NCBI RefSeq assembly: GCF_023016265.1
Contig: NZ_CP095412.1
Span: forward strand, 3,472,001 to 3,536,000
Reading direction: 5' to 3'
DNA: 64,000 nucleotides
Origin: Blastococcus sp. PRF04-17
GTDB taxonomy: Bacteria > Actinomycetota > Actinomycetes > Mycobacteriales > Geodermatophilaceae
Part shown: one piece after another, positions 6,671 through 35,658 of the stretch
Numbering within the stretch: position 1 is the first letter of the stretch
Layout of the letters: the number at the start of each line of letters is the position of its first letter
Position numbers and translations under genes: made by a program
The notes under the pieces: generated by a model
The model's input: the letters and a program-made list of their open reading frames with translations, nothing else
Database searches by the model: none
What the model was told of the DNA's origin: nothing

Positions 6671-6705
6671 TACTCGCCAGTAACAACGGTATTACCCACC
6701 AGTAG
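6671..6705 (-). promoter_or_regulatory. Paired operator-like sites upstream of fadE5
   Basis: TACTCGCCAGTAAC (6671-6684) and TTACCCACCAGTAG (6692-6705) are two imperfect palindromes of the form TTAC-N5/6-AGTA, 21 bases apart (two helical turns). The first matches the site at 35645-35658 upstream of the etfD-like gene at 13 of 14 positions. The shape suits a TetR-type repressor. The regulator is not identified here. Confidence 0.6.
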
Positions 6706-6773
6706 CAACGAGCAAGGCAGCGCGCGGTGACACGCCCGGACGGGGTGATCTCGTTCCGGTTCCGAGCGCCTGC

Positions 6774-7163
6774 TCAGCGGTTCCTGCGCCGCCGGACCGC
6801 CATGACGGCGTCGAGGAGCCCGACGATCAGCCCACCCAGGGCGGCGGCGATGAGCAGGGCGACGACGAGGGGTGCGCGGACGTCGGTGAAGACCAGGCTG
6901 ATGTCCACCGTCTGGGTGTTGAACATGACGAAGAGGACGAGCACCACCGTCACGAACACCAGCAGCGCCGCGGCCAGCCCCCGGCCGATGGTCCGGCCGG
7001 GCGAGCGCCCGGAGCCGGTGGTCTCGGCAGGCCGGGTCGTGGGCGGAGAGGTGGCCGGGCCCGTGGCGGTGGCCGGCGGCGGGCTCGGTCGGTCGCGGCC
7101 GAGGGAGCCGGGATTCGGGGTCGAGCCGGGGGTGCCGGCGGGGCGTGGATCGGGAGTGCTCAC
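6774..7163 (-). CDS. LapA-domain (DUF1049) membrane protein
   Basis: The 129-residue product has a Pro/Thr/Gly-rich cytoplasmic N-terminus (about 55 residues). Two membrane helices follow: GLAAALLVFVTVVLVLFVMF and PLVVALLIAAALGGLIVGLL. The signature between them, FNTQTVDISLVFTDVRAPL, is characteristic of the lipopolysaccharide-assembly protein A/DUF1049 domain. It ends in a basic cluster (RRRRNR). In actinobacteria without LPS the role is unknown; a membrane-scaffolding part is plausible. Confidence 0.8.
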   Translation of the reverse strand: MSTPDPRPAGTPGSTPNPGSLGRDRPSPPPATATGPATSPPTTRPAETTGSGRSPGRTIGRGLAAALLVFVTVVLVLFVMFNTQTVDISLVFTDVRAPLVVALLIAAALGGLIVGLLDAVMAVRRRRNR

Positions 7164-7203
7164 ATCCCTGAGTGTGGCGGCGCCGGGCCTCCTCCGCAGC
7201 AGG

Positions 7204-7368
7204 TCAGTGCGCGTCGGGCTCGGTCCCCGCCGGTGGATAGCTGGGACCGGCCACGCCGCTGGCCGGTCCGTCCTCGCCGCCCTGGGACTGCTTGTCCCCG
7301 ACCGGCGCCGTCTCGGTGCCGAGGGGGTGGGCGTCGCGCTCGTCGTCGTCCGGTGTCGGCATCGTCAT
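7204..7368 (-). CDS. Small acidic hypothetical protein (54 aa)
   Basis: The product MTMPTPDDDERDAHPLGTET... ending AGTEPDAH is acidic and Gly/Pro-rich. ATG at 7368, or the in-frame ATG at 7362, could start it; no strong ribosome site is visible. The frame is open further upstream, but only through repeat R2, so the longer start is unlikely. No family recognised. Confidence 0.45.
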   Translation of the reverse strand: MTMPTPDDDERDAHPLGTETAPVGDKQSQGGEDGPASGVAGPSYPPAGTEPDAH

Positions 7369-7424
7369 GCGGTCATCGTCGCCCGGCGGCGGGCGCGCAG
7401 CCACTCCGTCGGCCGGCCTGGCCA

Positions 7425-7506
7425 TGATCAGGGAACCTGATCGCCCAGCGTCCTCCCTCACCGCCCACCATGAGGGAGGACGCCGCATGATCAGGGACCC
7501 TGATCG
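7425..7506. repeat. Dispersed repeat family R2, copy A (palindrome-hairpin-palindrome)
   Basis: The order is: GATCAGGGAACCTGATC (7426-7442); a 12-bp hairpin, CGTCCTCCCTCA with TGAGGGAGGACG (7449-7482, 10-nt loop); then GATCAGGGACCCTGATC (7489-7505). The same three-part design recurs at 54779-54860. It lies between two minus-strand genes. Confidence 0.85.
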
Positions 7507-7515
7507 TGGCCGCAG

Positions 7516-7940
7516 TCAGGCGTCGAGGGCCGGGCCGGGCTCGTGACGAGGGTGCCCGGCGGTCCGCTCGCGCTGCTTCATCCGCGCCTCGAACACGTGC
7601 CGGTCGCCCCCGAGAGTTCGTCGCGCGCGCGCCGGTCGAACGAGCGGAAGGCGCTCCAGTAGTTGTCGTCGAAGTCCTCGACGATCTGGAAGGTCCAGCG
7701 ATCGGCGATGACGTTGCGCCCGACGAGATCGCGGTCCAGGTCGTCGGCGAGCGCGCCGTGGCCGGCCTTCCGCAGGAGCTCCACCGCCTCCTGGAGCTGG
7801 CGGTCGGCCTTGCCGGTCAGCTGGTGGAACGCGTAGAGGAAGCCACGGGCCTGGTCGACGGTCTCGAGGGCCTCGGACAGCTTGCCGAGCCCCTCGACCG
7901 TGGTGTCGTCGAGGTCGGGGCGGGAGCGATCGGTCGTCAC
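7516..7940 (-). CDS. Conserved actinobacterial hypothetical protein, frameshifted near 3' end
   Basis: The product begins MTTDRSRPDLDDTTVEGLGKL. It contains ARGFLYAFHQLTGKADRQLQEAV and LVGRNVIADRWTFQIVEDFDDNYWSAFR, which I recognise as a conserved but uncharacterised actinobacterial family. The frame runs off after DELSG. One added base in the 5-C run at 7607-7611 (plus strand) restores GGDRHVFEARMKQRERTAGHPRHEPGPALDA and a stop at 7516, which is the usual family ending. Mostly helical, soluble; function unknown. Confidence 0.75.
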
Positions 7941-7977
7941 CCGCCCATCGTGCGGGCCGGGCCAGCGACCTGCCCGC

Positions 7978-8601
7978 TCAGGCCTCGCCGGTCGCGATGC
8001 CGATCAGCCGCTCGGCCAGCTGACGGCCGTGGGACGCCGGACCGTCGGGTCCGAGCAGCCCGCCGGACAGGTACATGCCGTCGATGATCAGGTGGAGCTG
8101 CGCGGCGAGATCCTCGCCGCGGCCGGGTGCGATCTGCTCCGACAGGCGCTCGAGCCGGCTGTAGAGCTCGAACTTGTAGTCGGCGGCGGCGCTGCGGGCC
8201 GGGTGCTGCGGGTCGTCGTACTCGCTGCTGACGTTGTTGAACGGGCAGCCGCGGAAGCCGGTGCGCGTGACGTCGCGCTCGACGGCGTCCACGACGGACA
8301 GGAGTGCGGCCCGCGGGTCGCCTTCCAGCCGCACCAGCTCGGCGTCGACGAAGGCGAGCACCGTGGCGGCCTTGCGCGCGAGGTAGGCGCCGACCAGGTC
8401 GTCCTTGCTCTTGAAGAGCCGGTAGACCGTCATCTTGCCCAGGCCGGTCTCGCGGACCAGCTCGTCCATGCCCACGCTGCGGGAGCTCCGTCCGGCGAAG
8501 AGCCGTTCGGCGGTGTCGAGCACGATGGCCTGGCGCTCGGCGCGCGAGCGTCGAACGGGGGCCGTGGTGTCGGCGGCGTCGAGCTTGAGGGCGGCGGTCA
8601 C
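7978..8601 (-). CDS. TetR/AcrR-family transcriptional regulator
   Basis: The N-terminal helix-turn-helix is RQAIVLDTAERLFAGRSSRSVGMDELVRETGLGKMTVYRLFKSK (written here as one region, about residues 25-65). The C-terminal ligand domain has GFRGCPFNNVSSEYDD and HPAR, typical of the TetR_C YxaF-like group. I prefer the GTG at 8601 (207 aa). The open frame reaches a GTG at 8646, but the added codons have unusually AT-rich third positions. A perfect palindrome, TGGTGCACCA (8610-8619), lies just upstream of 8601 and could be an autoregulatory operator. Target genes unknown. Confidence 0.85.
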   Translation of the reverse strand: MTAALKLDAADTTAPVRRSRAERQAIVLDTAERLFAGRSSRSVGMDELVRETGLGKMTVYRLFKSKDDLVGAYLARKAATVLAFVDAELVRLEGDPRAALLSVVDAVERDVTRTGFRGCPFNNVSSEYDDPQHPARSAAADYKFELYSRLERLSEQIAPGRGEDLAAQLHLIIDGMYLSGGLLGPDGPASHGRQLAERLIGIATGEA

Positions 8602-8791
8602 GTCAGCGATGGTGCACCACCGGCGTGACGGAGCAGTTCGCGGCACGCCGAAGATGGTTGCGCTGTGTGACTAGAGGCGTCCGGGTTATGCGGGGCGGCG
8701 GGGGGACCTGATGCCCGTGTGACAGCGGAGCGTCATGAACGGCCCGGTTCCTCCTACCTCGGAGGCTCGGTGCGGGCCCCGGCGACGGGGG

Positions 8792-8929
8792 CTAGTCGCG
8801 GCGGGTGCGGCGCGGGTTGGCGAGCAGCCGCGCCATGGTGGCGGCGGTCGCCTGCTGGGTGCGCGACTCCTCGGTCTGCGCGGCCTCCGCGTCGCCTGAG
8901 ACGCCTACCTCGTGCTGCGTGTTCGCCAT
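8792..8929 (-). CDS. Possible small protein (45 aa)
   Basis: ATG at 8929 would give MANTQHEVGVSGDAEAAQTE... ending LLANPRRTRRD: an acidic first half and a basic tail. The ribosome site is weak and I recognise no family. It occupies the gap between the TetR gene and the LLM oxidoreductase and could be non-coding. Confidence 0.3.
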   Translation of the reverse strand: MANTQHEVGVSGDAEAAQTEESRTQQATAATMARLLANPRRTRRD

Positions 8930-9021
8930 GCCGACCAGCCTGCCCTCGCCCTCCGCGGCGAAAACAGCCCCGATCGCGTGATCCTCGTTACGGAGACTGA
9001 GAGTTCCCTCACCCGCCGGAC

Positions 9022-10038
9022 TCAGCGGAGCGCGCGCACCAGGGGGTCCCAGCGGTCCAGCGGCGCCGGGTAGGAGGCGTAGACGCTGAACCGGTCGACC
9101 AGTCCCCCGTAGCGGGCCCGCACCTGCGCGGCGAGCTCCTCGGGCTCCGCCACGACGGCGAACGTGGCCAGCACCTCGTCGGCGACCAGGTCGCGCATCG
9201 CCGTCCACTTGTCGGGCCGGCGGCCGACCGACAGGGCGTGCAGCTCGTCGGCGAGGGACTCCCAGCCGTGCAGCTCGAGCACCGGCCGGTAGGCCGGGGT
9301 GCTGCCGTAGAAGGCGATCGTCGCCTTCACCGCCGAGGCCGCCTCGGCGCGTTCCGCGTCGGTGCGGCCGGACACGACCAGTCCCGGCAGCGTGACGGCG
9401 ACCTGGTCGAGCGACCGTCCGGCGGCGGCCAGGCCCTCCTCCAGTGCCGGGAGCGTCCGCTCGCGCAGGTACCGCTCGGTGGTGAAGCCGTGCACGAGCA
9501 GCCCGTCGCCGACCTCGCCGGCCAACCGGGTCATGGCCGGCCCCACGGCGGCCAGGTACACCGGCGGAGGGCCCCACTCGTGGGCGTCGGGCGCGAACAT
9601 CGGCGTCATCAGCGTGTGCCGGTAGTGCTCGCTCTGGAAACGCAGCGGCGTGCCGTCCTGCCAGGACGCCCAGATCGCCCGCAGCGCGCCCACGAACTCC
9701 CGCATGCGGGCGACGGGGGCGCTCCACGGCATGGAGAACCGGCGCTCCACGTGGGCCTTGACCTGGGTGCCGAGGCCCAGGACGAAGCGGCCCCGTGAGT
9801 ACCGCTGCAGGTCGTAGGCGGTCGTCGCGAGGGTCATGGGCGAGCGGGCGAAGGCCACGGCGATCGCGGTGCCGATCTGCAGCCGGTCGGTGGCCTGCGC
9901 GGCCATGAGCAGCGGCAGGAAGGGGTCGTGGTCGACCTCCGACGCCCACACGCCGGTGTAGCCCCGTGCCTCCAGGTCCCGGGCGGTGGCGGGGATGTCG
10001 TCGATCCCGGTCGAGAGGAGCGCGGCGTCGAGGAGCAC
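9022..10038 (-). CDS. LLM-class F420-dependent oxidoreductase (TIGR03617-like)
   Basis: The product has the luciferase-like TIM barrel: LLDAALLSTGIDDIPATARDLEARGYTG, then LQIGTAIAVAFARSP, GRFVLGLGTQVKAHVERRF, PVYLAAVGPAMTRLAGEVGDGLLVHG and ALEEGLAAAGR. It reads best as a TIGR03617-type enzyme using F420 (family knowledge). GTG at 10038 gives the usual M-L-L-D start and has GGGCAGGG just upstream; GTG at 10047 is the alternative. It is divergent from the acyl-CoA operon at 10145, sharing a 100-bp promoter region, which suggests a shared pathway. Substrate unknown. Confidence 0.85.
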   Translation of the reverse strand: MLLDAALLSTGIDDIPATARDLEARGYTGVWASEVDHDPFLPLLMAAQATDRLQIGTAIAVAFARSPMTLATTAYDLQRYSRGRFVLGLGTQVKAHVERRFSMPWSAPVARMREFVGALRAIWASWQDGTPLRFQSEHYRHTLMTPMFAPDAHEWGPPPVYLAAVGPAMTRLAGEVGDGLLVHGFTTERYLRERTLPALEEGLAAAGRSLDQVAVTLPGLVVSGRTDAERAEAASAVKATIAFYGSTPAYRPVLELHGWESLADELHALSVGRRPDKWTAMRDLVADEVLATFAVVAEPEELAAQVRARYGGLVDRFSVYASYPAPLDRWDPLVRALR

Positions 10039-10092
10039 GCCCGGCACCCTGCCCGACGGGGGCCGGTGCTGGCCAGGCGGAGTGCCTCGACC

Positions 10093-10131
10093 TAGGTTCA
10101 CTCCCGGAACCCGGCAGCGTCGCCGGTTCCG
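10093..10131 (+). promoter_or_regulatory. Possible promoter and inverted repeat before the AtuA operon
   Basis: TAGGTT (10093-10098) fits an actinobacterial -10 box (TANNNT). Just downstream CGGAACC (10105-10111) and GGTTCCG (10125-10131) form a 7-bp inverted repeat, which could be a repressor site or 5' hairpin. GGAGG at 10135-10139 precedes the GTG start. Confidence 0.35.
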
Positions 10132-10144
10132 AGCGGAGGTGGGC

Positions 10145-10936
10145 GTGGCGGACCGGGCAGCGGTGCTCGCCGATCTGGCCGCGGAGGGCGACGCGCTCGA
10201 CGCCGTCGTCGCGCATCTGGAGGACACCGCCTGGCGAACGCCGACACCGGCGGAGGGCTGGACCGTCGCCGACTCGATCTCGCACCTGGAGTGGACCGAC
10301 CGGCAGACGCTGCGGGCCCTCACCGATCCCGACGGTTTCGCCGCGGCCGTGGCCGCGTTCGCGGACCGGGTGGACACGATCGTGGACGACGAGGCCAGGG
10401 CGGGCGCGGCCACCGAGCCGGCGGGACTGCTGCACCGATGGCGGACCGGCCGGACCGCGGTGTCCGAGGCCCTCGCCGCGGTCAGGGACGACGAGCGCAT
10501 CCCCTGGTTCGGCCCGCCGATGAAGGCGTCGTCCATGGCGACGGCGCGGCTGATGGAGACGTGGGCGCACGGCATCGACGTCACCGACGCGCTCGGACTG
10601 CCGCCCACGGCGTCCGACCGGCTGCGGCACGTGGCCCACCTCGGCGTCCGCACGCGGGACTTCGCCTTCCTGCAGCGCGGGCAGACGCCGCCGGCCGAGC
10701 CGTTCCGGGTCGAGCTGACGTCCCCCGGCGGCGACGTCTGGTCCTGGGGCCCGGAGGACGCCGCCCAGCGGGTCACCGGCCCGGCGCTGGACTTCTGCCT
10801 GCGGGTGACCCGGCGTCGCCACCGTGCCGACCTCGCGCTGGCGGCCACCGGCGCCGAGGCCGACCGGTGGCTGGACCTCGCGCAGGCGTTCGCCGGGCCA
10901 CCCGGCGCCGAGCGCGAGCCGCGGGAGGGTGCGTGA
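10145..10936 (+). CDS. TIGR03084-family (maleylpyruvate isomerase/DinB-fold) putative metal-binding protein
   Basis: The 263-residue product starts VADRAAVLADLAAEGDALDAVVAHL. Candidate metal-binding His residues of the DinB/MDMPI fold are in DSISHLEWTD and ETWAHGIDVTDALGL. GWTVADSISHLEWTD and FGPPMKASSMATARLMETW mark the TIGR03084 family as I know it. GTG at 10145 has GGAGG five bases upstream. It is the first gene of a five-gene operon and overlaps the next start (GTGA). Reaction unknown; related folds act as thiol-dependent isomerases or transferases, which would fit acyl-CoA metabolism. Confidence 0.8.
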   Translation: MADRAAVLADLAAEGDALDAVVAHLEDTAWRTPTPAEGWTVADSISHLEWTDRQTLRALTDPDGFAAAVAAFADRVDTIVDDEARAGAATEPAGLLHRWRTGRTAVSEALAAVRDDERIPWFGPPMKASSMATARLMETWAHGIDVTDALGLPPTASDRLRHVAHLGVRTRDFAFLQRGQTPPAEPFRVELTSPGGDVWSWGPEDAAQRVTGPALDFCLRVTRRRHRADLALAATGAEADRWLDLAQAFAGPPGAEREPREGA

Positions 10937-12632
10937 GCGAGCCGCTGCGGATCGGCAATGCCTCCGGCTTCTACGGCGACCGGCGCGCGGCGGTGCGGGA
11001 GATGCTCGAGGGCGGGCCGCTCGACGTCCTCACCGGGGACTACCTCGCCGAGCTGACCCTGCTGATCCTGGGCCGCGACCGGATGAAGGACCCGTCCCGC
11101 GGCTACGCCCGCACCTTCCTGGCCCAGATGGAGGAGTGTCTCGGGCTGGCCGTCGACCGCGGCGTGCGGACCGTGGTCAACGCGGGCGGGCTGAACCCGG
11201 CCGGGCTGGCGACGGCGCTGCGCGAGCAGGCCGACCGGCTCGGCATCTCCGCCGCCGTCGCGTCGGTCGAGGGGGACGACCTGCTGCCGCGGGCCGAGGA
11301 ACTGGGCCTGGGCCGGCCGCTCACCGCGAACGCCTACCTCGGCGCGTTCGGCATCGCCGAGTGCCTGCGGGCCGGCGCCGACGTCGTCGTCACCGGCCGG
11401 GTCACCGACGCCTCCCTGGTCGTCGGCCCGGGCATCGCCCGCTTCGGCTGGACCCGGGCGGACCTCGACGCGCTGGCCGGCGCGGTGGTCGCCGGCCACG
11501 TCCTCGAGTGCGGCGCCCAGGCGACGGGCGGCAACCTGTCCAGCTTCGACGAGTACCCCCTCGAGCAGCTGCTGCACCCCGGCTTCCCCGTGGCGGAGCT
11601 GGCGGCCGACGGCTCCGCCGTGATCACCAAGCATCCCGGCTCCGGAGGCGTGGTCGACCTCGACACGGTCACCGCGCAGCTCCTCTACGAGGTGGGTGGT
11701 CCGCGCTACGCCGGCCCGGACGTGGTGGCCCGCTTCGACACGATCGAGCTCGCCGGCGACGGCCCCGACCGGGTGCGCATCTCCGGCGTCCGGGGCGAAC
11801 CGCCGCCGCCGGAGGTCAAGGTGTGCCTCAACTCCCTCGGCGGGCACCGCAACGAGGTCACCTTCGTGCTGACCGGCGACCGGATCGACGCGAAGGCCGC
11901 CTTCGTGCGCGCCCAGTTCGAGGCCGCGCTGCCGGCCCGCCCACAGGAGCTCGTCTGGTCCACCCTCGGCGCCGAGGACCCGGACGCCGACACGGAGGCA
12001 TCGGCCAGCGTGCTGCTGCGCTGCCAGGCGCTCGACCCATCACCGGACGTCGTCGGCCGCGCGTTCAGTGGCGCCGCCGTCGAGCTCGCGCTGGCGAGCT
12101 ACCCCGGCTTCCACCTCACCGCGCCGCCCGGCAGCGGCTCCCCGTTCGGGGTCTACACCGCGGCCTTCGTGCCGCAGGACGCCGTCCCGCACGTCGCCGT
12201 CCTGCCGGACGGGACGCGCGTCGACGTCCCCTCGCCCGCGGTCACCTCCCCCTCGAGCCCGTCCCAGGGGCCGAAACCGCGGTTTCGGCCCCTGGCGGAC
12301 CGACGCGGCGGGCGCCGCTGGGGGCGGTGGCCCGGGCGCGCAGCGGCGACAAGGGTGGGACGGCGAACATCGGGCTGTGGGCGCGCACCGACGCCGGCGG
12401 CGCGTGGCTGGCCGACGTCCTGACGCCCGACGAGGTCCGCGCCCTGCTGCCCGAGGCGGCCGACCTGCCGGTCACCGTCCACCCGCTGCCGAACCTGCGG
12501 GCGGTGAACGTGGTGATCGACGGGCTGCTCGGCCGCGGCGTCGCGGCCAGCACGCGGTTCGACCCGCAGGCCAAGGCGCTCGGCGAGTGGCTGCGCGGCC
12601 GCGTCCTCGACATCCCGGAGGCCCTCCTGTGA
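10933..12632 (+). CDS. AtuA-family (DUF1446) acyclic terpene utilisation protein, frameshifted in the linker
   Basis: The large N-terminal DUF1446 domain runs from PLRIGNASGFYGDRRAAVREML through NAGGLNPAGLATALREQAD, TGRVTDASLVVGPGIARFGW and ECGAQATGGNLSSFDEYPLEQL to about base 12240. The C-terminal AtuA ferredoxin-like domain is APLGAVARARSGDKGGTANIGLWAR to the end. They lie in different frames. One added C in the C5 run at 12248-12252 joins them into one protein of about 566 residues. The linker then reads through a 32-bp perfect palindrome (repeat R3). AtuA is needed for growth on citronellol/geraniol in Pseudomonas, though its reaction is unclear. Start and stop overlap both neighbours. 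Confidence 0.85.
12264..12295. repeat. Palindromic repeat family R3, inside AtuA coding region
   Basis: A perfect 32-bp palindrome centred on AAACCGCGGTTT, flanked by GGGGCCG/CGGCCCC arms. It encodes part of the inter-domain linker of the AtuA protein. Related palindromes lie at 17397-17456. Confidence 0.85.
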
Positions 12633-14241
12633 CCGCGTTCCGCACCGCGCTGGACACCGCGTCCGAGCAGTTCGCCGCCAACCGCGCCGCGATGCTCGAC
12701 GCGCTGGCGGCGCTGGACGCCGAGCACGCCAAGGCGCTGGCCGGCGGCGGCGAGAAGCCGGTCGCGCGGCACCGCGAGCGCGGCAAGCTGGCGCCGCGGG
12801 AGCGCATCGAGCTGCTGCTGGACCCCGACAGCGCCTTCCTCGAGCTCTCGCCGCTGGCCGCCTGGGGCAGCGACTTCGCCGTCGGCGCCAGCGTCGTCAC
12901 CGGCGTCGGCGTCGTCGAGGACGTCGAGTGCGTGGTCATCGCCAACGACCCGACGGTCCGCGGCGGCGCGAGCAACCCCTGGACGCTGAAGAAGTCGCTG
13001 CGCGCGCTGCAGATCGCCCGCGAGAACCGGCTGCCGGTGATCCAGCTGGTCGAGTCCGGCGGCGCCGACCTGCCCACGCAGAAGGAGATCTTCGTCCCGG
13101 GCGGGCAGCTGTTCCGCGACCTGACCCGGCTCTCGGCCGAGGGCATCCCGACGATCGCGCTGGTCTTCGGCAACTCCACCGCCGGCGGCGCGTACGTGCC
13201 CGGCATGAGCGACCACGTGGTGATGGTCGACGGCGGCGCGAAGGTGTTCCTGGGCGGTCCGCCGCTGGTGCGCATGGCCACCGGCGAGATCGCCGACGAG
13301 GAGGAGCTCGGCGGCGCCGCGATGCACGGGCGGGTCAGCGGGCTGGCCGACTCCGTCGCGCGGGACGAGGTCGACGCGCTGCGCATCGGACGGCGCATCG
13401 TCGCCCGGCTCAACTGGCGCAAGCGGGGGCCGCGGCCAGGGCCGGTCGCGCCGCCGCGGTACGACGAGGAGGAGCTGCTCGGCGTCGTCGGCACCGACCT
13501 GTCCCGGCCGTTCGACCCGCGCGAGGTCCTCGCCCGGATCGTCGACGACTCCGACTTCGACGAGGTCAAACCGCGGTACGGCGCCAGCCTGGTCACCGCC
13601 TGGGCGCGCATCCACGGCCAGCCCGTCGGCATCCTGGCCAACGCGCAGGGCGTGCTGTTCAGCCAGGAGGCGCAGAAGGCCACCCAGTTCATCCAGCTGG
13701 CCAACCAGACCGACACCCCGTTGGTCTTCCTGCACAACACGACCGGCTACATGGTCGGTCGGGAGTACGAGCAGGGCGGGATCATCAAGCACGGCGCGAT
13801 GATGATCAACGCCGTCTCCAACAGCCGGGTGCCGCACCTGTCGGTGCTGCTCGGCGCCTCGTACGGCGCCGGCCACTACGGCATGTGCGGCCGGGCGTAC
13901 GACCCCCGCTTCTTGTTCGCCTGGCCCTCGGCGAAGTCGGCCGTCATGGGGCCGGCGCAGCTGGCCGGCGTGCTCTCGATCGTCTCCCGGGCCGCCGCCG
14001 AGGCCCGGGGAGGCCGTTCGACGAGGAGGGCGACGCCGCCATGCGCGCGGCCGTCGAGGCGCAGATCGAGGCGGAGTCGCTGCCGCAGTTCCTCTCCGGT
14101 CGGGTCTACGACGACGGCGTCATCGACCCGCGGGACACCCGCACGGTGCTGGGTCTGTGTCTCTCGGCCGCGGCCACCCGTGAGATCGAAGGCGTCGGCT
14201 CGGGGTCCGGGACCCCGGGCTTCGGCGTCTTCCGGATGTGA
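12629..14241 (+). CDS. Acyl-CoA carboxylase beta (carboxyltransferase) subunit, frameshifted near 3' end
   Basis: It transfers carboxyl from biotin to an acyl-CoA. Typical motifs are RHRERGKLAPRERIELLLDPDS, DPTVRGGASNPWTLKK, LVESGGADLPTQ, NSTAGGAYVPGMSD, FLGGPPLVRMATGE and LGASYGAGHYGMCGRAYDPRF. The pattern resembles methylcrotonyl-/geranyl-CoA carboxylases (MccB/AtuC) more than propionyl-CoA enzymes. The frame shifts after AAAEARG; one added G in the 14007-14010 run gives RGRPFDEEGDAAM and the normal end TPGFGVFRM. GTG at 12629 overlaps the AtuA stop. The substrate is inferred from context as 3-methylcrotonyl-, geranyl- or a similar beta-methyl-enoyl-CoA. Confidence 0.9.
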
Positions 14242-14249
14242 GGCCTTCC

Positions 14250-26115: not shown

Positions 26116-26250
26116 CCAGGACGACCCCGCGCCGAACGGGTGCAGGCGACGCCCAGGCCCACCGCCGTTCGGCAGGTCGTCGCACCGCCCGCGTCCTGAC
26201 CCGCCGGCGTCGGCGAGCGGAGTCGCCGCCGCGCTGGCAGGCTCGCCGGG

Positions 26251-26664: not shown

Positions 26665-26665
26665 G

Positions 26666-26736: not shown

Positions 26737-26788
26737 GAACGCCGCCCAGACTACCTGGCGAGCCCGCCCGCGCGGGAGCAGCCCCTGA

Positions 26789-27751
26789 TCAGCGGCGCAT
26801 CTCGGCGAGGAATCCGGTGGCCTCCGAGCGCAGCCGCTCGGCCATCTGCGACAGCCCGGTGATGTCGTCCCCGCCGGTGGCCAGCGAGGACGAGCCGTCG
26901 ACCGCCGCCGCGATGCCGTCGACGAGGGTGTTCATCTCGCCGACCGTCGTCCCCACCGTGCCCATCCGGGCCGCGACCGCCTCGGTGGCCTCGCGGATCT
27001 GCTCGACCTGGGCGGTGACCCGCAGGGTTGCCTGACCGGTCTGGTCCGCGAGGTCCTTGACCTCGGAAGCGACCACGGCGAACCCCTTGCCGGCCTCTCC
27101 GGCGCGGGCGGCCTCGATCGTGGCGTTGAGGGCCAGCAGCCGGGTCTGCGCGGCGATGGCGTCGATCATCGCGATGATCTCCTTGATCTCGGCCGAGGAG
27201 GTGGTCAGGGAGGTGATCGTCGCCTGCGCGGTGCCGACCTCGGTGGCGGCGGCACCGGCCGCGGCCGTCAGCCCGGACGCCGACGCGCTCATCTCCGTCG
27301 AGGCGGTGGCCACCTGCTCCGACATGGCCAGGACGACGGACTCGAAGGCGTCGGCCAGGCGCAGGCGGGCGTTCTGCGCCTCGGTGACCCGGCCGGCCGT
27401 CTCCTGCATGGCCGTCCGGGCGGTGTTGATGTCGGTGGCGCTCTTCCGGAAGGCGCCGCGCAGGCCGGTCAGCAGCAGCCGTCGGGAGAACCGGCCCTCC
27501 GCGGCGGCGGTGAGCGCGGCCGACGACTCGCGGACGAAGGCGTCGGAGACGTCGAGCACCCGGTTGACGGCGTCGTGCAGAGCGGCCAGCTCCGGCCGGG
27601 CCGCGATCTCGGGCGTCGGGCGCACCCGGGCCTCCAGGTCGCCGCGGGCGGCGGCGTCGCAGGTCTCGGTCAGCTGGCGCACGAAAGCCCGGTGGGCGGC
27701 GAGCTCCGCGGCGTCGTCGCCTCCCTGGGCGCGCAGGCCCCGGAAGCCCAT
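26789..27751 (-). CDS. Soluble methyl-accepting chemotaxis protein, partner of PAS sensor
   Basis: The 320-residue product has no membrane segment. A HAMP-like helical region (residues about 25-110) leads to an MCP signalling domain. Its hairpin tip reads [46 protein letters not shown], a close match to the conserved MCP tip ([24 protein letters not shown]). The start codon lies one base after the stop of the PAS gene, so the two are co-translated and probably form one energy/redox sensor. No other chemotaxis gene lies in this window. Confidence 0.9.
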
Positions 27752-27752
27752 G

Positions 27753-28313
27753 TCAGCTCTCCTCGCGGTTGATGATCGACCAGACGAGGTCGTCGTAGCC
27801 GCCGCCCTGCTCGGCCAGGATGTCGGTCAGCAGCTGCGAGGAGGCGGAGACCGCCGCCTTGGCACCGGGGTGCCGGCGCTCCTCGGCGGACAGCCGCGCG
27901 TACAACGGCCGCACCGCCTCGATCGCCCGCTGCGCGGGCTTGCGACGGCTTGAGTGGTAGCCGACGACCCGGCCGCGGGCGTCGAAGGACGGCGTCACGT
28001 GGGCCAGCACCCAGTAGTGGGCGCCGTCCCGGGCGAGGTTGTTGATGTAGGCGAAGAGTTCCTCACCGCGGCCGAGCGTCTGCCAGAGGAGCCAGAAGAC
28101 CGCCCGGGGCATCTCGGGGTGCCGGATGAGGTTGTGCGGACGGCCGAGGACTTCGTCCATCTCGTAGCCGCTGACCCGCAGGAACACGTCGTTGGCGTAG
28201 GTGATGACGCCGCGCGGATCGGTCTTGGAGACGATCAGCTCGTCGGCGTCGAACGTGCGCTCCTGGCCGGTGGGTCGCACCGCCCGCCCCGGTGCCGGCT
28301 GCAGATCCAGCAT
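27753..28313 (-). CDS. Aer-like PAS domain protein
   Basis: The 186-residue product has an N-terminal PAS domain very like the FAD-binding PAS of Aer: [56 protein letters not shown], then [31 protein letters not shown] helical tail follows. It lacks its own signalling domain, which is supplied by the adjacent MCP gene. ATG at 28313 has GGAGGAGGG just upstream. Confidence 0.9.
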
Positions 28314-28385
28314 GTGCCCTCCTCCAGGATCGACGTCCGGAGGTTGTCATCGGCAGGCCGCCGAGCGGCCGGTACCGGCACGCAG

Positions 28386-28424
28386 CTGCGCCCCGTCCGC
28401 ATGGGGAGGTCGGACGGGGCGCAG
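28386..28424 (-). terminator. Hairpin downstream of the S8 protease
   Basis: CTGCGCCCCGTCC (28386-28398) pairs perfectly over 13 bp with GGACGGGGCGCAG (28412-28424), with a 13-nt loop. It lies 30 bases past the protease stop and upstream of the PAS gene. Confidence 0.7.
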
Positions 28425-28453
28425 CGGTTCGGGCCGCATGTCGAGGACTCGGC

Positions 28454-31128
28454 CTAGATCGCGACCCCCGTGCAGGACGAGGAGCAGTTCACCGACCAGA
28501 TGGAGCCCAGCGCCCGGAACCTGTCGGACCGGACGAGGCGCTCACCCGCCGGACCGGTGCGCTCGACCGGGCCGGTGCCGGTGCCCGGACCGCCGGGCGC
28601 CCCGTCCTCACCGCCGTCCTCGCCGCCGTCGTCCCCCGGTGGCGTGGCGCCGTCCCCGGGCGCGGGGGCGCCCGGGTCGGTCCCGTCACCCGGCCCCGTC
28701 GGGGCCGACGGGTCGACGTAGGTCAACGCCCGGCTGAGCACCTGCGCGGTGTCGTCCGGCGCGTAGATCGACACGTCGTAGGTGTCGGCCGTGCGTGCCG
28801 GGACCCGGAAGGTGACCCGCGTGCTCGTCGCCGTGACCACGGAGGCCGTCGCGGTGGCGCCGATCCGGATGGTCGGCGATTCCGGCAGGGCGAGCCCGGT
28901 GATGGTCACCAGCGTGCCCCCGGCGGTGCCGACCCTGTTCGGGCTGAGCGAGGTCACCTTGAACACGCCCAGCTCGTCGTAGCGCGTCGTGTCCGGGGAC
29001 GAGCCGCCGGCGTCCGGCGCCGTCGGCGTGCTGCCGCCCGAGCCGATGGGCGGCGTGCCGCCGCCGGAGCCGATGGGCGGGACGACCGGCGAGGTCACCG
29101 GTGGGGTCACCGGGGCGACGGGTGTGCCGGGGCCCGCCGGGTTGGGTGCTCCCGGCTCGGCCGGATCGCCCGGCTCGGCCGGGTCGCCGGGCACGGCGCC
29201 GCCGCCGGGAGGCGTGCCGGAGCCGCCGGTCTCCGGCGTCGTGCCGGGGAGGGTCGGACTGCCCGGCGGGACCGGGCTGCCGCCGCCGGGGGCGGGGTGC
29301 CCGTGCCGGGAGGCGCACCTCCAGGAGCGGTGCCGCCGGGCTGCGTGCCGGCGTCCGGCGTCGTCCCGCCCGGAGCGGTGCCGCCGCCGGGAGCCGCGCC
29401 GTCGGTGGGGGTCTCGTCGCCCGGCGCCGGGACGGCGGCGCCGACCAGCAGCGGGGCGGCGTGCGTCCGGCCGACGGGCTCGCCGTCGCGGTACAGCTGA
29501 ACGGTCAGGACGTAGCGCCCGTCACCGAGCTCCATCGCCGGAGTCAGGCCCACTGACCCGGAACCGGCGAACGTGCCGAGCGGGAAGGCGGCGTCACCCG
29601 CGTCGTCGGTGGCCACGGTGACGCCGTCGAGCGTGATGTCCTTGTCCGCCAGCGCCCAGATCTCGCCGGCGTGCTCCATCCCCAGGCCGAGCACGACCTC
29701 GTAGGCGCCGGCGGCCGTCGGGCCGCTCACCCCGATGCCCGGGGTCAGGAGGCCGGCCGGAGCGGTCATCGAGGTGAAGGCGTAGCCGACCGACTCGGCC
29801 GGGGTGCCCGCCAGGCGGCTCATCGTCAGGCGGCCGCCGGTCACCGACCTGCCGCTGAACGCGGGCAGGGGGTCCACGTCGTCGAGCACGGCCTGCTTCA
29901 GCTCGGCGTGGCCGGCGTCGGGCATGTGAGCGCGGTACAGCGCGTAGGCGGCGGCGACGTGCGGCGCTGCGATGGAGGTGCCACTGACCAGCCGGTAGCC
30001 GCCGTCGTTCCACGTGGTGGCCACGAGGTAGCCCGGAGCGAACAGATCCACGTTGGACGCGCCGTAGGCGGAGCTGGGTGATGCCGTGTCGCCGGCCGTC
30101 GAGCTGCCGACCGTCACGATGTTCGGGTCGGTCAGGCTGGCCGGGTAGAGGATGTTCGTGTCCCGGTTGGCGGCGTCGTTGCCGGCCGCCGCGACGACCA
30201 GGACGTCGTGGGCGGCGGCGTAGGCGACCGCGTTCCGCAGATTCTGCAGAGCAGTGCCGGTGAACGCCCCGCCCCAGGAGGCGTTGATGACGTCGGCGCC
30301 GTTGTCCACGGCGTACCGGATCGCCTGGGCTCCCAGGTTGACGTCGACGCTGCCACCTCCACCGATGACCAGCGGCATGATCCTGGCCTGCGGCGCGACG
30401 CCGGCCACGCCGATGCCGTTGCCGGCGCGGGCGGCGACGACGCCGGACACGCCCGTGCCGTGGGAACCCATGCCCGCGTTGTCGAGGTCGGCGTTGTTCG
30501 AGTAGAAGTTCCAGCCGTGGCAGTCGCCGGCCTTGCCGTTCCCGTCGGTGTCGCCGCCACCGCACGGCTGGCCGGGGTTGGTCCACAGCGCGCCGGCCAG
30601 GTCCGGGTGGTCGGTGTCGAAGCCGGTGTCGGTGACGGCGATGACCAGGCCGTCTCCTGTCCCGGTGGCCCACCCGTCGGTGGCGTCCACGTCGGCGTCG
30701 GCGACGGCCGCCACCGGCTGCTGGTAGGAGTTGGTGCCGGTGTTCTCGAGGTTCCAGCCGTACTGGGGGAAGTACGGGTCGGTGACGGTGCCGAGCACGG
30801 GAGCGGAGACCGAGAACTCGGCGTGCGCCACGCCGGGGACCACGGCGAGCTGGTGCGGGGCGAGTCCCTCCGTGGCGACCAGCGCACGGCCGTCGTCGAG
30901 CGACTGCGCGGTCACGACCCCGTCCACCGACTCGAGGGCCTCGAGCATCGCCGCGTCGACGGCTCCGGCGTCCGCGGTCAGGACGATCCGGGTCAGGCCG
31001 TCGTCCGGTCCGAAGTCGGTGGCGATCGGGATCGCCGGCGCGGCCAGCGCAGAGAACACCGCCGCGCCGGCGTAGCCGGCCACGACCGCACCGGCCAGCG
31101 CGACCGCCTGGACCCGCTTGCTCTTCAT
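28454..31128 (-). CDS. Secreted S8 (subtilisin-like) serine protease with Pro/Gly linker and IPT/TIG domain, frameshifted
   Basis: ATG at 31128 (GGAGAGG upstream) opens a signal peptide (KSKR, then a hydrophobic run to about residue 30). A propeptide-like region follows, then the catalytic domain with Asp167 ([16 protein letters not shown]), His223 ([10 protein letters not shown]), oxyanion Asn317 (AAAGNDAA) and Ser385 ([13 protein letters not shown]). A beta-rich domain and a long Pro/Gly/Thr linker come next. The frame breaks in that linker at the G5 run 29286-29290; one added base continues [15 protein letters not shown]. An IPT/TIG domain ([25 protein letters not shown]) and an acidic tail ending [11 protein letters not shown] complete it, about 890 residues. 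Extracellular protein degradation is inferred. Confidence 0.88.
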
Positions 31129-31278
31129 CGACCGACCTCTCCCCGCTGGCGCGCGCCTGCGCGTTCCCGGCGTCAACGGCGGGTCGGGTGCGGCTCTTGA
31201 GAACGCCCGGTTCCGATTCGCTCGGAGGAGTGAGCCGCTGGAGGGGTCCTGGTCGGCCGGGCCCCCGGATCGGGTCCC

Positions 31279-31284
31279 TAGACT
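31279..31284 (+). promoter_or_regulatory. -10 box for a probable leaderless dcd transcript
   Basis: TAGACT lies 7 bases before the ATG at 31292, and no ribosome-binding site fits between. That spacing places the transcription start at the start codon. Confidence 0.5.
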
Positions 31285-31291
31285 CCGCGCC

Positions 31292-31879
31292 ATGCTGCTG
31301 AGCGACCGCGACATCACGGCCGCGATCGCCGAGGGCCGCCTCGGCATCGAGCCCTACGACAAGGCGCTCGTGCAGCCCTCGAGCATCGACGTCCGGCTCG
31401 ACCGGTTCTTCCGGGTCTTCAACAACGCCCGGTACACCCACATCGACCCGGCCCAGCAGCAGGACGACCTCACCACCCTTGTCGAGCCCGAGGGCGACGA
31501 GCCGTTCGTCCTGCACCCGGGGGAGTTCGTGCTGGGTTCGACCCTCGAGGTCGTGTCGATCCCCGACGACCTGGCCGCCCGGCTCGAGGGCAAGAGCTCG
31601 CTCGGCCGGCTGGGCCTGCTCACCCACTCCACCGCCGGCTTCGTCGACCCGGGGTTCTCCGGTCACATCACGCTGGAGCTGTCGAACGTCGCGAACCTGC
31701 CGATCACGCTGTGGCCGGGCATGAAGATCGGCCAGCTCTGCCTGTTCCGGCTGACCGGCCCGGCCGAGCACCCGTACGGGTCGGCGGTGTACGGCTCGCG
31801 CTACCAGGACCAGCGGGGCCCGACGCCGTCCCGGTCGTTCCGCAATTTCACCCGGGCGGAGACGCGTCGTCCGTCCTGA
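31292..31879 (+). CDS. dcd: dCTP deaminase (probably bifunctional dCTP deaminase/dUTPase)
   Basis: The 195-residue product closely matches actinobacterial Dcd: [85 protein letters not shown] and the nucleotide-binding tail [16 protein letters not shown]. The M. tuberculosis homologue converts dCTP to dUMP directly, and the HSTAG segment here is the same. It feeds thymidylate synthesis. The last 32 bases overlap the convergent MFS gene. Confidence 0.95.
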
Positions 31880-33191
31880 GGTGGGCGACGACCGGCGCCT
31901 CGGCGCCGGCGACCTCGACGACCTCCTCGCCGCACCGCCGGGCTGACGTCCGGCCCGGGACCTCGTCGTCGACGAACCGCTGGTGGGTGCACAGCCACCC
32001 GGTGACCGCCATGAGGACGACCCCGACGAGCACGAGCACGAACATGCCGGTGTAGCTGCCGGTGCTGCCGCGGAGGACGCCGACGAGCAGCGGTCCGGCA
32101 GCGGCGATCAGGTAACCGAAGCCCTGGGTCGTCGTCGAGAGGGCGGCCGTGGTCTCCGGCGTGCGTGCACGCAGCCCGATGAGGGTCAGGATCATGGCGA
32201 ACGTGCCCATGGCCACCCCGAGCAGGCCCGTCCAGAGCAACGTCGCCGACCGCGGGCTGATCCACAGGCCCAGCCAGCCGACCAGGTAGCAGACCAGGAA
32301 GAAGACGAGCAGCGGCCGCTGCAGCCGGACCCGGACGGTCAGTGCCGGCACGACGGCGTTGACCGGCACGATCATCACCAGCGCGACGGCGAGGAAGAGG
32401 CCGGCAGCGGCCGCGCTGAGTCCCGCGTCCCGCAGGTACTGGGCCGTCCAGCCGGCGATGACGTAGGCCTCCATGGCCTGGATCCCGAAGAAGAGGGCCA
32501 GGGCGACGGCCGTGCGGCTCCGCAGCAGTGCGCGGACCCGGACGGTCGGCTGTCCGACGGGCGAGCCACCGGGCCGGGCCGGCACGGCCAGCCACACGAC
32601 CGCGGCGACGAGCGCGGGCACCGCCCAGACGGCGAGCGCCCACCGCCAACCCTCGCTTCCCGCGGCGTCGGCGATCGGCTGGGCGACGACGGCGACGACG
32701 GCGCCACCGACGCTCATGGCCGTGCTGTAGGCGCCCACGAGCAGGCCGGTGCGGTGCGGGAAGTACCGCTTGACCAGGCTGGGCAGCAGCACGTTGCCGA
32801 GCGCTCCGCCGGTCATGGCGATCACCGTGCCGAGGAGGAACAGCCAGAAGGCCCCGGCCACCCCACGGAGAACGAGGCCGGCCGCCATCGCGGCCAGCGC
32901 ACCGAACAGGACGTGCGAATCCCGGTACCGCGCCGACAGCGGCGGACCGGCGAAGCCCAGGGCCGCGAAGCACAGGACCGGCAGCGCGGTGATCACTCCG
33001 GCGAGGCTGCTGGAGAGGTCCAGCCCTTGCTCGATCTCCTCGAGCACCGGCCCGACGCTGTTGACCGCCGTGCGCAGGTTCAGGGCGGTCAGGACGATCG
33101 CGACGCCGATGAGGAGCAGCCCCCGGCCGTGGGTGCCAGGGGTCGCTGCTGCCGGTTCGGCGGTGCGGGTCACCGGGCGATGGTCCTCCAC
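31848..33191 (-). CDS. MFS transporter, CynX/NimT type
   Basis: The 447-residue product has about 12 membrane helices, beginning [33 protein letters not shown], the characteristic CynX/NimT start. [29 protein letters not shown] is the conserved loop and helix. CynX/NimT members export or import cyanate, nitroimidazoles and other small anions; substrate unknown here. The GTG at 33191 is used; GTG at 33173 with GGAGG about 11 bases upstream is a good alternative. The cytoplasmic C-tail overlaps the dcd 3' end by 32 bases. Confidence 0.88.
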
Positions 33192-33201
33192 CCGGAACGA
33201 C

Positions 33202-33236
33202 GGCGGCGCGCGCCCCCTGGGGGAACGCGCGCCGCC
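33202..33236 (-). terminator. Hairpin downstream of the etfD-like gene
   Basis: GGCGGCGCGCG (33202-33212) pairs with CGCGCGCCGCC (33226-33236), an 11-bp perfect stem. It lies 10 bases past the etfD stop and just before the MFS start. Confidence 0.65.
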
Positions 33237-33245
33237 GGGGTCATG

Positions 33246-35536
33246 TCAGGCCTGGCCGTGCTCCGTCGCCGCCGAGTCCAGGCCGACGACGTCATCGGCC
33301 TTGGTGCCGACGTCCGCGCCCTGCTCGGTGCCCTGCGCGCCGACCGGGGCCAGCGAGCGCAGCAGGATCTGGCTGACGTCGAGGACCTCGACGTGCTCGC
33401 CGATCTCCCCTGCCTGCTTCTTGGCGGTGACGGCGTCGCTCAGCATCGTGATGCAGAACGGGCAGGCGGTGGAGATGACGTCGGGGTCGAGCTCGAGGGC
33501 CTCCTCGGTGCGCTCCATGTTGATGCGCTTGCCGATCTTCTCCTCCATCCACATGCGCGCGCCGCCGCGCCGCAGCAGAAGCCGCGGTCCTTGCAGCGGT
33601 GCATCTCCTGGGTGGAGAGGCCACCGACGGAGTCGAGGATCTCCCGTGGCGGCGTGTAGACCTTGTTGTGCCGGCCGAGGAAGCAGGGGTCGTGGTAGGT
33701 GACCTTGCGGTCGACCGGCGTGACCGGGGTGAGCCGGCCGTCGGCCACCAGCTGGCTGATCAGCTGGGTGTGGTGGACGACCTCGTAGTGGCCCTCGACC
33801 TGCGGGTACTCCTTGCTCAGCGAGTTGAAGCAGTGCGGGCAGGTCGCGACGATCTTGCGCATGCCGGGCACCCGGCCCTCGAAGACGCCGTCGAGGGTGG
33901 CCACGTTCTCCTGCGCCAGCATCTGGAACAGGAACTCGTTGCCCATGCGGCGGGCCGGGTCGCCCGAGCAGGTCTCCCCGTTGCCGAGGACGGCGAACTC
34001 CACGCCGGCGATGTGCAGCAGCTCGGCGACGGCCTTGGTCACCTTCTTGGCGCGGTCGTCGACGGCGCCGGCACAGCCGACCCAGAACAGGTACTCGATG
34101 TCGTAGTCCAGGGGGCCGTCGGCCACCTTCACCTCGAAGTCGAGCTCCTTGATCCAGTCCTCGCGGACGTTGCCGCCCATGCCCCACGGGTTCCCGCGCT
34201 TCTCGAGGTTGGTCATCATGACGCCGGCCTCGGACGGGAAGTTGGACTCGATGAGCACCTGGTACCGGCGCATGTCGTCGATGTGGTCGATGTGCTCGAT
34301 GTCGACCGGGCACTGCTCGACGCAGGCGCCGCAGTTGGTGCAGCTCCACAGGACGTCGGGGTCGATGACCCCACCCTCCTCGAGGGTGCCGACCAGCGGA
34401 CGGTGCGCCTGTGCGTCGTTGGTCCCCTCGATGCGGGCGTAGCCGCTCGCCCAGACCTGTTCGTCGCTGGGCTTCAGGACGTCGTAGTCCGGCGCGGTCT
34501 CCGACGCGGTCTTCTCGCCGAGGAGGTAGGGGGCCTTCGCGTACAGGTGGTCGCGGAGGTCCATGATCACCATCTTGGGGCTGAGCGGCTTGCCCGTGTT
34601 CCACGCCGGGCACTGGCTCTGGCACCGCCCGCACTCGGTGCAGGTGGTGAAGTCGAGCATCCCCTTCCAGGTGAAGTCCTCGATCTTGCCGCGGCCGAAG
34701 ACGTCGTCCTCGCCGGGATCCTCGAAGTCGATCGGCTTGCCGCCGCTGGTCATGGGCAGCAGCGGGCCGAGCGCGGGTGCGCCGTCGGCGTTGCGCTTGA
34801 AGTAGATGTTGAAGAAGGCGCTGAACCGATGCCAGGCCACGCCCATGTTCAGGATCCTGCTGATGACGACCAGCCAGACCAGGCTCACCACGATCTTGAC
34901 GAAGGCCACGATCGTGAGCAGGTCGGGGCTGTCCGGCAGCACCGTGGCCAGCGCGCCGGAGACCGGGTGCGACCAGGCCGGCGCCTCGGTGAGGTCGCTG
35001 CTCACCTTGAGCGCGCGGATCAGCAGGATGCAGGTGCCGACGGTCAGGACGACCGCCTCGACGAAGTAGCCGCGGCCCTCGTTGGTGCCGGCGAAGCGGC
35101 TCTTGCGGCCCTGGCGCCGCGGGTGGTCCTTCTGGCGCCGGTAGATCAGGTAGAGGATGCCGAGGATCGTGCCGGTGCCGATGATGTCGGCGAACAGGTT
35201 CCAGAGGAACCACTCGCCGATGAGCGGCAGGTGGAAGGCCGGGTTCCACACCTCGCCGAAGGCCTCGACCAGCGTGAGGAACAGGCCGTAGAAGCCGACG
35301 AAGACGAACCAGTGGGCGATCCCGATGGTGGACCACTTGAGCATCCGGGTGTGGCCGAGCGACTCGACCAGCATCATCTTCAGCCGCGTCTTGACCGGGC
35401 CGAACCGGGTGCCGTCGGGCTGGCCGGTGCGGATGATGCGGACCATGGCGCGGACCGCCCGGTAGGCCATGACCGAGGCCACGATCAGGAACAGGACGCT
35501 GATCGTGCCCAGGACGATCTGCAACGGGCCCGTCAT
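33246..35536 (-). CDS. etfD: EtfD-like membrane Fe-S oxidoreductase (heterodisulfide-reductase type), frameshifted
   Basis: The N-terminus carries several membrane helices (IVLGTISVLFLIVASVMAY; AHWFVFVGFYGLFLTLVEAF; two more), like a NarI-type b subunit. Two 4Fe-4S motifs follow, CTECGRCQSQCP and CTNCGACVEQCP. Then come CCG-type cysteine domains: CPHCFNSL, HDPCFLGRHN, CCGAGGARMW and CPFCITML. The frame breaks within the third (about 33570); one added G restores GAGGARMWMEEKIG. The full length is about 763 residues. It is homologous to M. tuberculosis Rv0338c, described as EtfD, which passes electrons from ETF to the quinone pool during beta-oxidation. ATG at 35536 has GGGAG upstream, and an operator-like site shared with fadE5 lies 109 bases upstream. 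Confidence 0.9.
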
Positions 35537-35644
35537 CGATCTCCCTCTCCCAGCGCCGGGCGACCCACGGCGACGGGTCCACGGTAGGTGTGCGCCGTTC
35601 GCCGCACCGACCGGGGTCGGAGCACGACGAGCGCGCCCCGATGC

Positions 35645-35658
35645 TACTCGCCGGTAAC
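35645..35658 (-). promoter_or_regulatory. Operator-like site upstream of etfD, shared with fadE5
   Basis: TACTCGCCGGTAAC differs at one position from TACTCGCCAGTAAC at 6671-6684 before fadE5, and the preceding C is also shared. Reading on the etfD strand it is GTTACCGGCGAGTA, a TTAC-N5-AGTA imperfect palindrome. Confidence 0.6.

What the first reader, a model, noticed from the sequence alone, without database searches (positions are those of the whole stretch)
6671..35658. fadE5 and the etfD-like gene share an operator-like motif
TACTCGCCAGTAAC (6671-6684) before fadE5 and TACTCGCCGGTAAC (35645-35658) before the etfD-like gene differ at one base over 14 (two more flanking bases also agree), in otherwise unrelated upstream regions 29 kb apart. 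fadE5 has a second related site, TTACCCACCAGTAG (6692-6705). FadE5 hands electrons to ETF, and EtfD (Rv0338c type) is reported to take them from ETF to quinone. A single repressor, probably TetR-type given the TTAC-N5-AGTA form, could therefore co-control both ends of the beta-oxidation electron path. The regulator is not obviously in this window, though the TetR gene at 7978 is a candidate to test.
Basis: partly seen in the sequence, partly recalled or inferred. Interest (0 to 1): 0.78.

Follow-up and report, generated by a model that had tools for sequence, protein, structure and literature searches.

The report
Class-wide fatty-acid oxidation operator
A short mirror-image DNA switch, probably the landing site of a repressor that senses fatty-acid building blocks, sits before the genes that burn fatty acids and pass on their electrons, and it appears to be kept across the Actinomycetes.

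Summary
The shared motif is real: a palindromic operator, wGTTACYSR|YSRGTAACw, once before etfD (35644-35657) and twice before fadE5 (6670-6683, 6692-6705).

It is conserved far beyond this family. A site precedes fadE5 in 78 of 78 named loci with upstream DNA and 60 of 60 class genomes tested, etfD in 19 of 30 loci and etfB in 16 of 30; background is about 0.011 per upstream region. In this genome the ten best sites found precede ccr, a thiolase, fadE5, etfD, etfB, an Mce-type importer, a CoA mutase and two acyl-CoA dehydrogenases.

At fadE5 one operator lies inside the -35/-10 spacer, the other just behind the -10 (48 of 65 loci, control 0), implying repression.

The best regulator candidate is not the window's TetR but the orthologue of mycobacterial FasR (G000:C1:4018853-4019488): present in 57 of the 60 operator-bearing genomes, its own gene carrying the operator in 10 of 29 loci (a TetR paralogue: 0 of 30). 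The published FasR-DNA crystal oligonucleotide contains ACTCGCCAGTA, as the fadE5 site does. Binding is untested; one genome (G068) has the operator but no FasR or FdmR gene.

The parts
6670..6683 (-). proximal operator of fadE5 (gene strand TTACTGGCGAGTAG), 56 bp before the ATG, just after the -10
   Evidence: score 25.3
6692..6705 (-). distal operator of fadE5 (gene strand CTACTGGTGGGTAA), inside the -35/-10 spacer
   Evidence: score 25.3; anatomy
6710..6715 (-). probable -35 of fadE5 (TTGCTC), spacer 18
   Evidence: read from the sequence; the pattern is conserved at this place in related loci
6686..6691 (-). probable -10 of fadE5 (TACCGT) between the two operators
   Evidence: read from the sequence
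4783..6627 (-). fadE5, acyl-CoA dehydrogenase
   Evidence: Pfam; match in 61 of 79 class genomes (own included), the others 57-70% identical
35644..35657 (-). operator of etfD (gene strand TTACCGGCGAGTAG)
   Evidence: (score 25.0)
35641..35646 (-). probable -10 of etfD (TAGCAT), overlapping the operator's end
   Evidence: my reading: TANNNT at this place in 18 of the 21 family loci with a site; no control run
33440..35536 (-). etfD-like gene (CCG and 4Fe-4S domains); its C-terminus is out of frame in this assembly
7978..8646 (-).

Best explanation
The motif is the operator of a TetR-family, acyl-CoA-responsive repressor of fatty-acid oxidation that is conserved across the class. In this genome the repressor is most likely the single orthologue of mycobacterial FasR (G000:C1:4018853-4019488, minus strand), outside the window. 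Proposed working: without long-chain acyl-CoA, a repressor dimer sits on each palindrome. At fadE5 one dimer lies in the -35/-10 spacer and a second just behind the -10, over the likely transcription start, so RNA polymerase is shut out. Long-chain acyl-CoA loosens the repressor, and fadE5, etfD, etfBA, thiolase, acyl-CoA dehydrogenases, ccr and the lipid importer are switched on together. Acyl-CoA oxidation, its electron outlet and the use of its acetyl-CoA would then rise as one. Shown here: the operator, its conservation, its promoter position, its neighbours, and co-occurrence and self-targeting of FasR-type genes. Inferred: that FasR binds it, that it represses, and the ligand (taken from M. 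tuberculosis FasR and M. marinum FdmR).
For: Operator before fadE5 in 78 of 78 named loci (68 with two or more by consensus; 65 with two 18-30 bp apart by matrix) and 60 of 60 class genomes (45 with a second site of score 10 or more). etfD 19 of 30, etfB 16 of 30, etfD in the family 21 of 29. Background 0.011 per region. Promoter: TTG before the distal site in 60 of 65, control 8; joint -35/-10 in 48 of 65, control 0. FasR-type gene (E up to 1e-30) in 68 of 79 genomes, one copy in 67 of these, and in 57 of the 60 operator-bearing genomes; the paralogue type (L049) in 43, FdmR (E below 1e-50, my cut) in 12. Four genomes of 1.3-1.4 Mb with only 3-5 TetR genes keep the fadE5 site and have a FasR-type gene. 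FasR-type genes carry the operator before themselves in 10 of 29 loci, L049-type in 0 of 30. The own protein matches FasR 6o6p nearly along its whole length, E 2.1e-59. The FasR-DNA crystal oligonucleotide holds ACTCGCCAGTA, as in the fadE5 site (PMC7382501, passages), and acyl-CoAs of C16 and longer break that complex (same call).
Against: No binding or expression data. G068 has operators at fadE5, etfB and etfD but no FasR-type and no FdmR gene in its draft. The site before the own FasR gene is degenerate (CAACCCGTCGGTAA, score 12.2), and 19 of 29 FasR-type genes have no site of score 15 or more. In M. tuberculosis FasR is described as an activator of fas-acpS, and fadE5 control is ascribed to FdmR. 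The own protein stays below NCBIfam's FasR cut-off (250.9 against 330 bits). 11 of 30 etfD and 14 of 30 etfB loci lack a site. 5 of the 19 own sites of score 15 or more are at genes with no clear lipid role or not annotated.
Confidence: 0.74

Rival explanations
1. The operator is real but a different regulator reads it here, for example the second conserved FasR-like TetR (L049 type, G000:C1:2371864-2372469) or a regulator not of this group.
For: L049-type protein is about 30% identical to FdmR and its recognition helix also begins SKP..Y; G068 keeps the operator with only this type.
Against: L049-type is missing (E above 1e-35) from 17 of the 60 operator-bearing genomes, including the four streamlined ones; 0 of 30 of its genes carry the operator.
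Confidence: 0.18
2. The regulator is an FdmR orthologue, as in Mycobacterium.
For: FdmR is described as a long-chain acyl-CoA-responsive TetR repressor and regulator of fadE5 (PMC12403877, PMC9262360; passages). A TetR of the FdmR place lies near fadE5 in mycobacteria and Pseudonocardiaceae.
Against: No FdmR orthologue seen in this genome: of three matches of the FdmR profile the two listed are the FasR-type (2.1e-34) and L049-type genes, and the tree keeps FdmR apart from both. Only 12 of the 60 operator-bearing genomes have one at my cut of 1e-50; G013, G036 and G048 have weaker extra hits (4e-43 to 2e-39) that I did not sort out.
Confidence: 0.03
3. The neighbouring TetR at 7978-8646 is the regulator, as first proposed.
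For: It lies 1.35 kb from fadE5 and is kept there in 7 Geodermatophilaceae loci.
Against: No operator before it; among the TetR genes near 80 fadE5 loci its close relatives were seen only in this family, while the operator is class-wide. Not searched for in whole genomes.
Confidence: 0.02
4. FasR binds here but activates, as reported for fas-acpS in mycobacteria.
For: M. tuberculosis FasR is an activator of fas-acpS (PMC7382501).
Against: The two fadE5 operators overlap the spacer and the start rather than lying upstream of the -35.
Confidence: 0.07
5. Chance likeness of two promoters.
For: The loose motif is hardly more frequent in the genome than its reversed control.
Against: 78 of 78 and 60 of 60 conservation, fixed promoter position.
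Confidence: 0.005

Closest known systems
FdmR (Rv0238 type) regulon of Mycobacterium
   Same: TetR repressor answering to long-chain acyl-CoA, regulates fadE5 and other fatty-acid degradation genes (as cited in PMC12403877 and PMC9262360, passages); the mycobacterial fadE5 loci fetched carry this same operator.
   Different: FdmR itself was not found in this genome, nor (at E below 1e-50) in 48 of the 60 operator-bearing genomes. The original paper (PMC8072231) was not held, so its motif and target list were not compared.
FasR of M. tuberculosis (Rv3208) and its operator in the fas promoter
   Same: Own candidate is a near full-length homologue (E 2.1e-59) with the same SKPVLYQHF helix; the crystal oligonucleotide contains ACTCGCCAGTA.
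   Different: FasR is described as an activator of fatty-acid synthesis; here the sites lie before oxidation genes and in repressor position.
FadR (YsiA) of Bacillus subtilis (title seen in the reference list; details recalled)
   Same: TetR acyl-CoA-responsive repressor of beta-oxidation including ETF genes (recalled).
   Different: Other subfamily: own protein scores 41.6 bits against a cut-off of 200 for NCBIfam's FadR model.
BkaR (Rv2506) of mycobacteria
   Same: TetR; 16-bp palindrome GTTA(N)T(N4)A(N)TAAC (PMC3920632, passages), similar outer arms.
   Different: Inner arms differ: here TTAC and GTAA are near invariant in the sites chosen; its targets are branched-chain keto-acid genes.

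Membership tests
FasR (M. tuberculosis Rv3208) orthologue group | full-length sequence homology to FasR, TetR N-terminal domain | tested here: met
   own residues 3-206 to 6o6p residues 41-244, E 2.1e-59; TetR_N match; own protein falls with the FasR-type rows, support 95/99 for the group with the streamlined genomes
FasR (M. tuberculosis Rv3208) orthologue group | curated NCBIfam equivalog cut-off NF053731 (330 bits) | tested here: not met
   250.9 bits over positions 1-196 of 199; the model is named for mycobacteria
FasR (M. tuberculosis Rv3208) orthologue group | operator sequence | tested here: inconclusive
   crystal 25-mer read contains ACTCGCCAGTA, as the fadE5 site; by eye its other half is one base off TACYNNNNRGTA; no binding test
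FasR (M. tuberculosis Rv3208) orthologue group | activation of a fas-acpS operon | not tested
   no site annotated here lies before a gene recognised as a fatty-acid synthase, but not every site was annotated
FasR (M. tuberculosis Rv3208) orthologue group | release by acyl-CoA of C16 or longer | not testable with these tools
   needs protein
FdmR | orthologous sequence | tested here: not met
   own hits listed 2.1e-34 and 9.1e-32, both in other paralogue groups; a third is not listed
FdmR | place downstream of fadE5 | tested here: not met
   TetR genes near fadE5 in the Geodermatophilaceae loci lie upstream and are of other types
TetR-type operator | palindrome with conserved arms, lying over a promoter | tested here: met

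The most novel reading that the evidence does not exclude
FasR, known as the activator of fatty-acid synthesis in mycobacteria, would be the ancestral and class-wide repressor of fatty-acid oxidation in Actinomycetes. It would couple lipid import, acyl-CoA dehydrogenation, the ETF/EtfD electron outlet and the ethylmalonyl-CoA pathway under one acyl-CoA sensor. FdmR and the activation of fas would be later changes in lineages such as Mycobacterium.
Probability: 0.55. Interest if true: 0.76.

Novelty: new variant of a known kind. Interest (0 to 1): 0.63.

Why it matters
If true, a regulator studied as a mycobacterial fatty-acid-synthesis activator is the common switch of fatty-acid burning in a whole bacterial class. 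EtfD, reported in 2021 as essential for beta-oxidation (PMC8593149, passages), would gain a regulator that ties it to FadE5 and ETF. It gives a ready operator model for predicting lipid-use genes in many Actinomycetes, and a direct question about how FasR could act as a repressor in most and an activator in mycobacteria.

Tried and rejected
Rejected: chance likeness; the window TetR as regulator; FdmR as the regulator here; L049-type TetR as the regulator; MadR (its consensus TCTGTG...) and Rv0158 (YGGCGGBGMCGGCGG), by motif.

Led nowhere or weak: counting the loose motif in the genome (little or no excess over the reversed control). The 3-mismatch scan of the window gave 15 against 3.9 expected, but most are weak strings. 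In the genome, loose-pattern sites near FMN_dh, FhaA, EF-Tu, an aldehyde dehydrogenase and one AMP-ligase (L042) scored under 15 and were left out of the regulon. The own-genome list covers only regions fetched because they matched one of two patterns, so it is not complete. The site at 3263585 (score 15.2) was not annotated.

Errors of mine: searches used the FasR-type gene in a wrong frame, so the tally and the empty one search are void; repeated in frame. One search read the L049 gene out of frame and is void; repeated. In some searches some loci were read in the wrong orientation or with a short flank; recomputed. The background used 40 of the 80 loci and did not mask every true fadE5 site, so it is too high. 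One search stopped on a script error; repeated. Thresholds (matrix 15; consensus 16.5; FdmR 1e-50) were set by me after seeing data. The 30-locus sets for etfD, etfB, FasR-type and L049-type are the best-scoring loci of 65, 74, 68 and 57 genomes with a match, not random draws.
Full report
Observation. All three are copies of one palindrome. A matrix from 148 sites before fadE5 in 78 named loci reads wGTTACYSR|YSRGTAACw; the TAC and GTA arms are about 99% constant and the middle is freer. The sites were chosen with a consensus of mine, and the matrix was made symmetrical, so its arms are somewhat idealised.

Is it more than chance? As a loose string, hardly: the genome holds about as many copies as of the reversed pattern. 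By position, yes. Named loci: 80 fadE5 loci were fetched (the nearest are Geodermatophilus and Blastococcus); 2 lacked upstream DNA; all other 78 have a site; 68 have two or more by consensus, and their spacing is 23-27 bp in 64 of 68. Class survey: 61 of 79 genomes have fadE5; I tested 60 (G020 ends at a contig edge and was not fetched) and 60 have a site of score 15 or more, 45 a second one of 10 or more. Second fadE5 copies in four genomes of the same order lack the site. EtfD: 19 of 30 class loci and 21 of 29 loci of the same family (own included; two copies of G106 lack it; partial matches of G083 and G086 were not all tested). EtfB: 16 of 30. The rate elsewhere is 24 in 764,641 positions of 40 fadE5 loci, 0.011 per region; with the consensus score it is 24 in 1,563,510 positions of all 80.

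Anatomy. In 65 named loci with two fadE5 sites 18-30 bp apart, a TTG lies in the 16 bp before the distal site in 60 (control window 8). A TTG and a TANNNT at promoter spacing occur in 48 (control 0). The distal operator therefore lies in the -35/-10 spacer and the proximal one just behind the -10. In the window this reads TTGCTC (6710-6715), operator, TACCGT (6686-6691), operator (sequence). Before etfD the operator's end makes a TAGCAT; 18 of the 21 family loci with a site have TANNNT there by my reading (no control run). This is the layout of a repressor.

Regulon in this genome. Sites ranked by the matrix, with genes by Pfam/NCBIfam or by reading ORFs: crotonyl-CoA carboxylase/reductase ccr (28.0), thiolase (26.7), fadE5 twice (25.3), etfD (25.0), etfB (24.2), an MlaF/Mce-type ABC ATPase followed by what looks like its permease (21.5; MlaF model 223 bits, under its cut-off; permease by eye), a methylmalonyl-CoA-mutase-family gene (20.3), and two acyl-CoA dehydrogenases (20.1, 20.0; the second shares its gap with a mannitol dehydrogenase). 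These are the first ten sites. The next nine of score 15 or more are mixed: 3-hydroxybutyryl-CoA dehydrogenase (19.5), GDSL lipase (18.7), a third acyl-CoA dehydrogenase (17.6) and an acyl-CoA ligase-type AMP-binding enzyme (16.5), but also an M14 peptidase (19.9), two glycosyltransferase neighbourhoods (19.7, 19.2), PorA (15.7) and one unannotated (15.2). So 14 of 19 sites lie at lipid or CoA genes, the importer counted. ccr, the mutase and a CitE-like lyase (14.4) suggest the ethylmalonyl-CoA pathway; that naming of the mutase and lyase is inference.

Which regulator? The genome has 35 TetR-domain matches. The window TetR has no site, and among TetR genes near the 80 fadE5 loci its close relatives were seen only in its own family. 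FdmR, described as the mycobacterial regulator of fadE5 (PMC12403877, PMC9262360, passages), was found by place, downstream of fadE5, in mycobacteria and Pseudonocardiaceae; taking that gene for FdmR rests on recalled gene order around Rv0238. A profile of it finds hits under 1e-50 in 12 of 79 genomes and none here; the own hits listed are two other genes. In a tree of 50 rows the L049 type is one group (100/100), the FasR type with the streamlined genomes is another (95/99), and the FdmR rows fall together with the fadE5 neighbours (93/91), with one very long own branch among them. The FasR-type gene is in 68 of 79 genomes and 57 of the 60 with the operator; L049-type is in 43 and FdmR in 12. 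The three operator-bearing genomes without FasR are G053 and G069, which have FdmR, and G068, which has neither. Four genomes of 1.3-1.4 Mb have only 3-5 TetR genes and still keep the fadE5 operator; all four have the FasR type, none the L049 type. FasR-type genes carry the operator before themselves in 10 of 29 loci; L049-type 0 of 30; FdmR 1 of 12, plus 3 of 11 named loci. The own protein matches M. tuberculosis FasR nearly along its length (E 2.1e-59). The FasR-DNA crystal oligonucleotide TACCCGTACGTAGAACTCGCCAGTA (PMC7382501, passages, section 10) contains ACTCGCCAGTA; the window's fadE5 site is TACTCGCCAGTA.

Reading. FasR-type repressor on the palindromes, released by long-chain acyl-CoA. 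The ligand and release are taken from FasR (C16 and longer) and FdmR, not shown here. I put 0.74 on the FasR orthologue as regulator and near certainty on the operator.

Against. No wet data; G068; the degenerate site at the own FasR gene and no site at 19 of 29 FasR-type genes; FasR's reported role as activator in mycobacteria; and the unread FdmR paper, which may already give this motif for mycobacteria. Paper searches showed, in their listings, no report that I recognised of FasR or this operator controlling beta-oxidation outside mycobacteria; those searches cover only open-licence papers.

Noticed in passing
window about 33560-33600 (etfD C-terminus): The etfD reading frame leaves the conserved sequence after CCGA; another frame continues the family's C-terminus, which a same-genus relative has in one frame. 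Likely an assembly indel or a real frameshift.
   Followed up: partly
window about 4020-4030: A short-chain dehydrogenase is split over two frames: N-part in ORF 3485-4420, C-part in ORF 3478-4209.
   Followed up: no
L036 about 2450 (G000:C1 about 4157150): ccr is split over two frames: TIGR01751 matches positions 3-158 in one and 157-397 in the other. With the two cases above this suggests indels in the assembly.
   Followed up: no
G000:C1:13745-14521 and 4193343-4194119: Two etfB copies, 98% identical; only the second has the operator.
   Followed up: partly
G000:C1:2371864-2372469 (L049): A second FasR-like TetR, one copy in each of 57 of 79 class genomes (the others 57-71% identical), no operator before itself in 30 of 30 loci, target unknown.
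   Followed up: partly
window 7978-8646: TetR gene kept beside fadE5 in 7 Geodermatophilaceae loci; role unknown.
   Followed up: partly
G003, G031, G049, G066: Second fadE5 copies without the operator.
   Followed up: no
G028:C7, G022:C279, G078:C1, G063:C1: In these four genomes fadE5 and etfD lie about 12-19 kb apart, as they are 27-29 kb apart here.
   Followed up: no
PDB 3f1b: An unnamed TetR structure in the PDB is a close relative of the FdmR-place protein (E 1.7e-72).
   Followed up: no
window 35765-36763: A protein with an AbiEi_4 antitoxin-type domain lies upstream of etfD.
   Followed up: no
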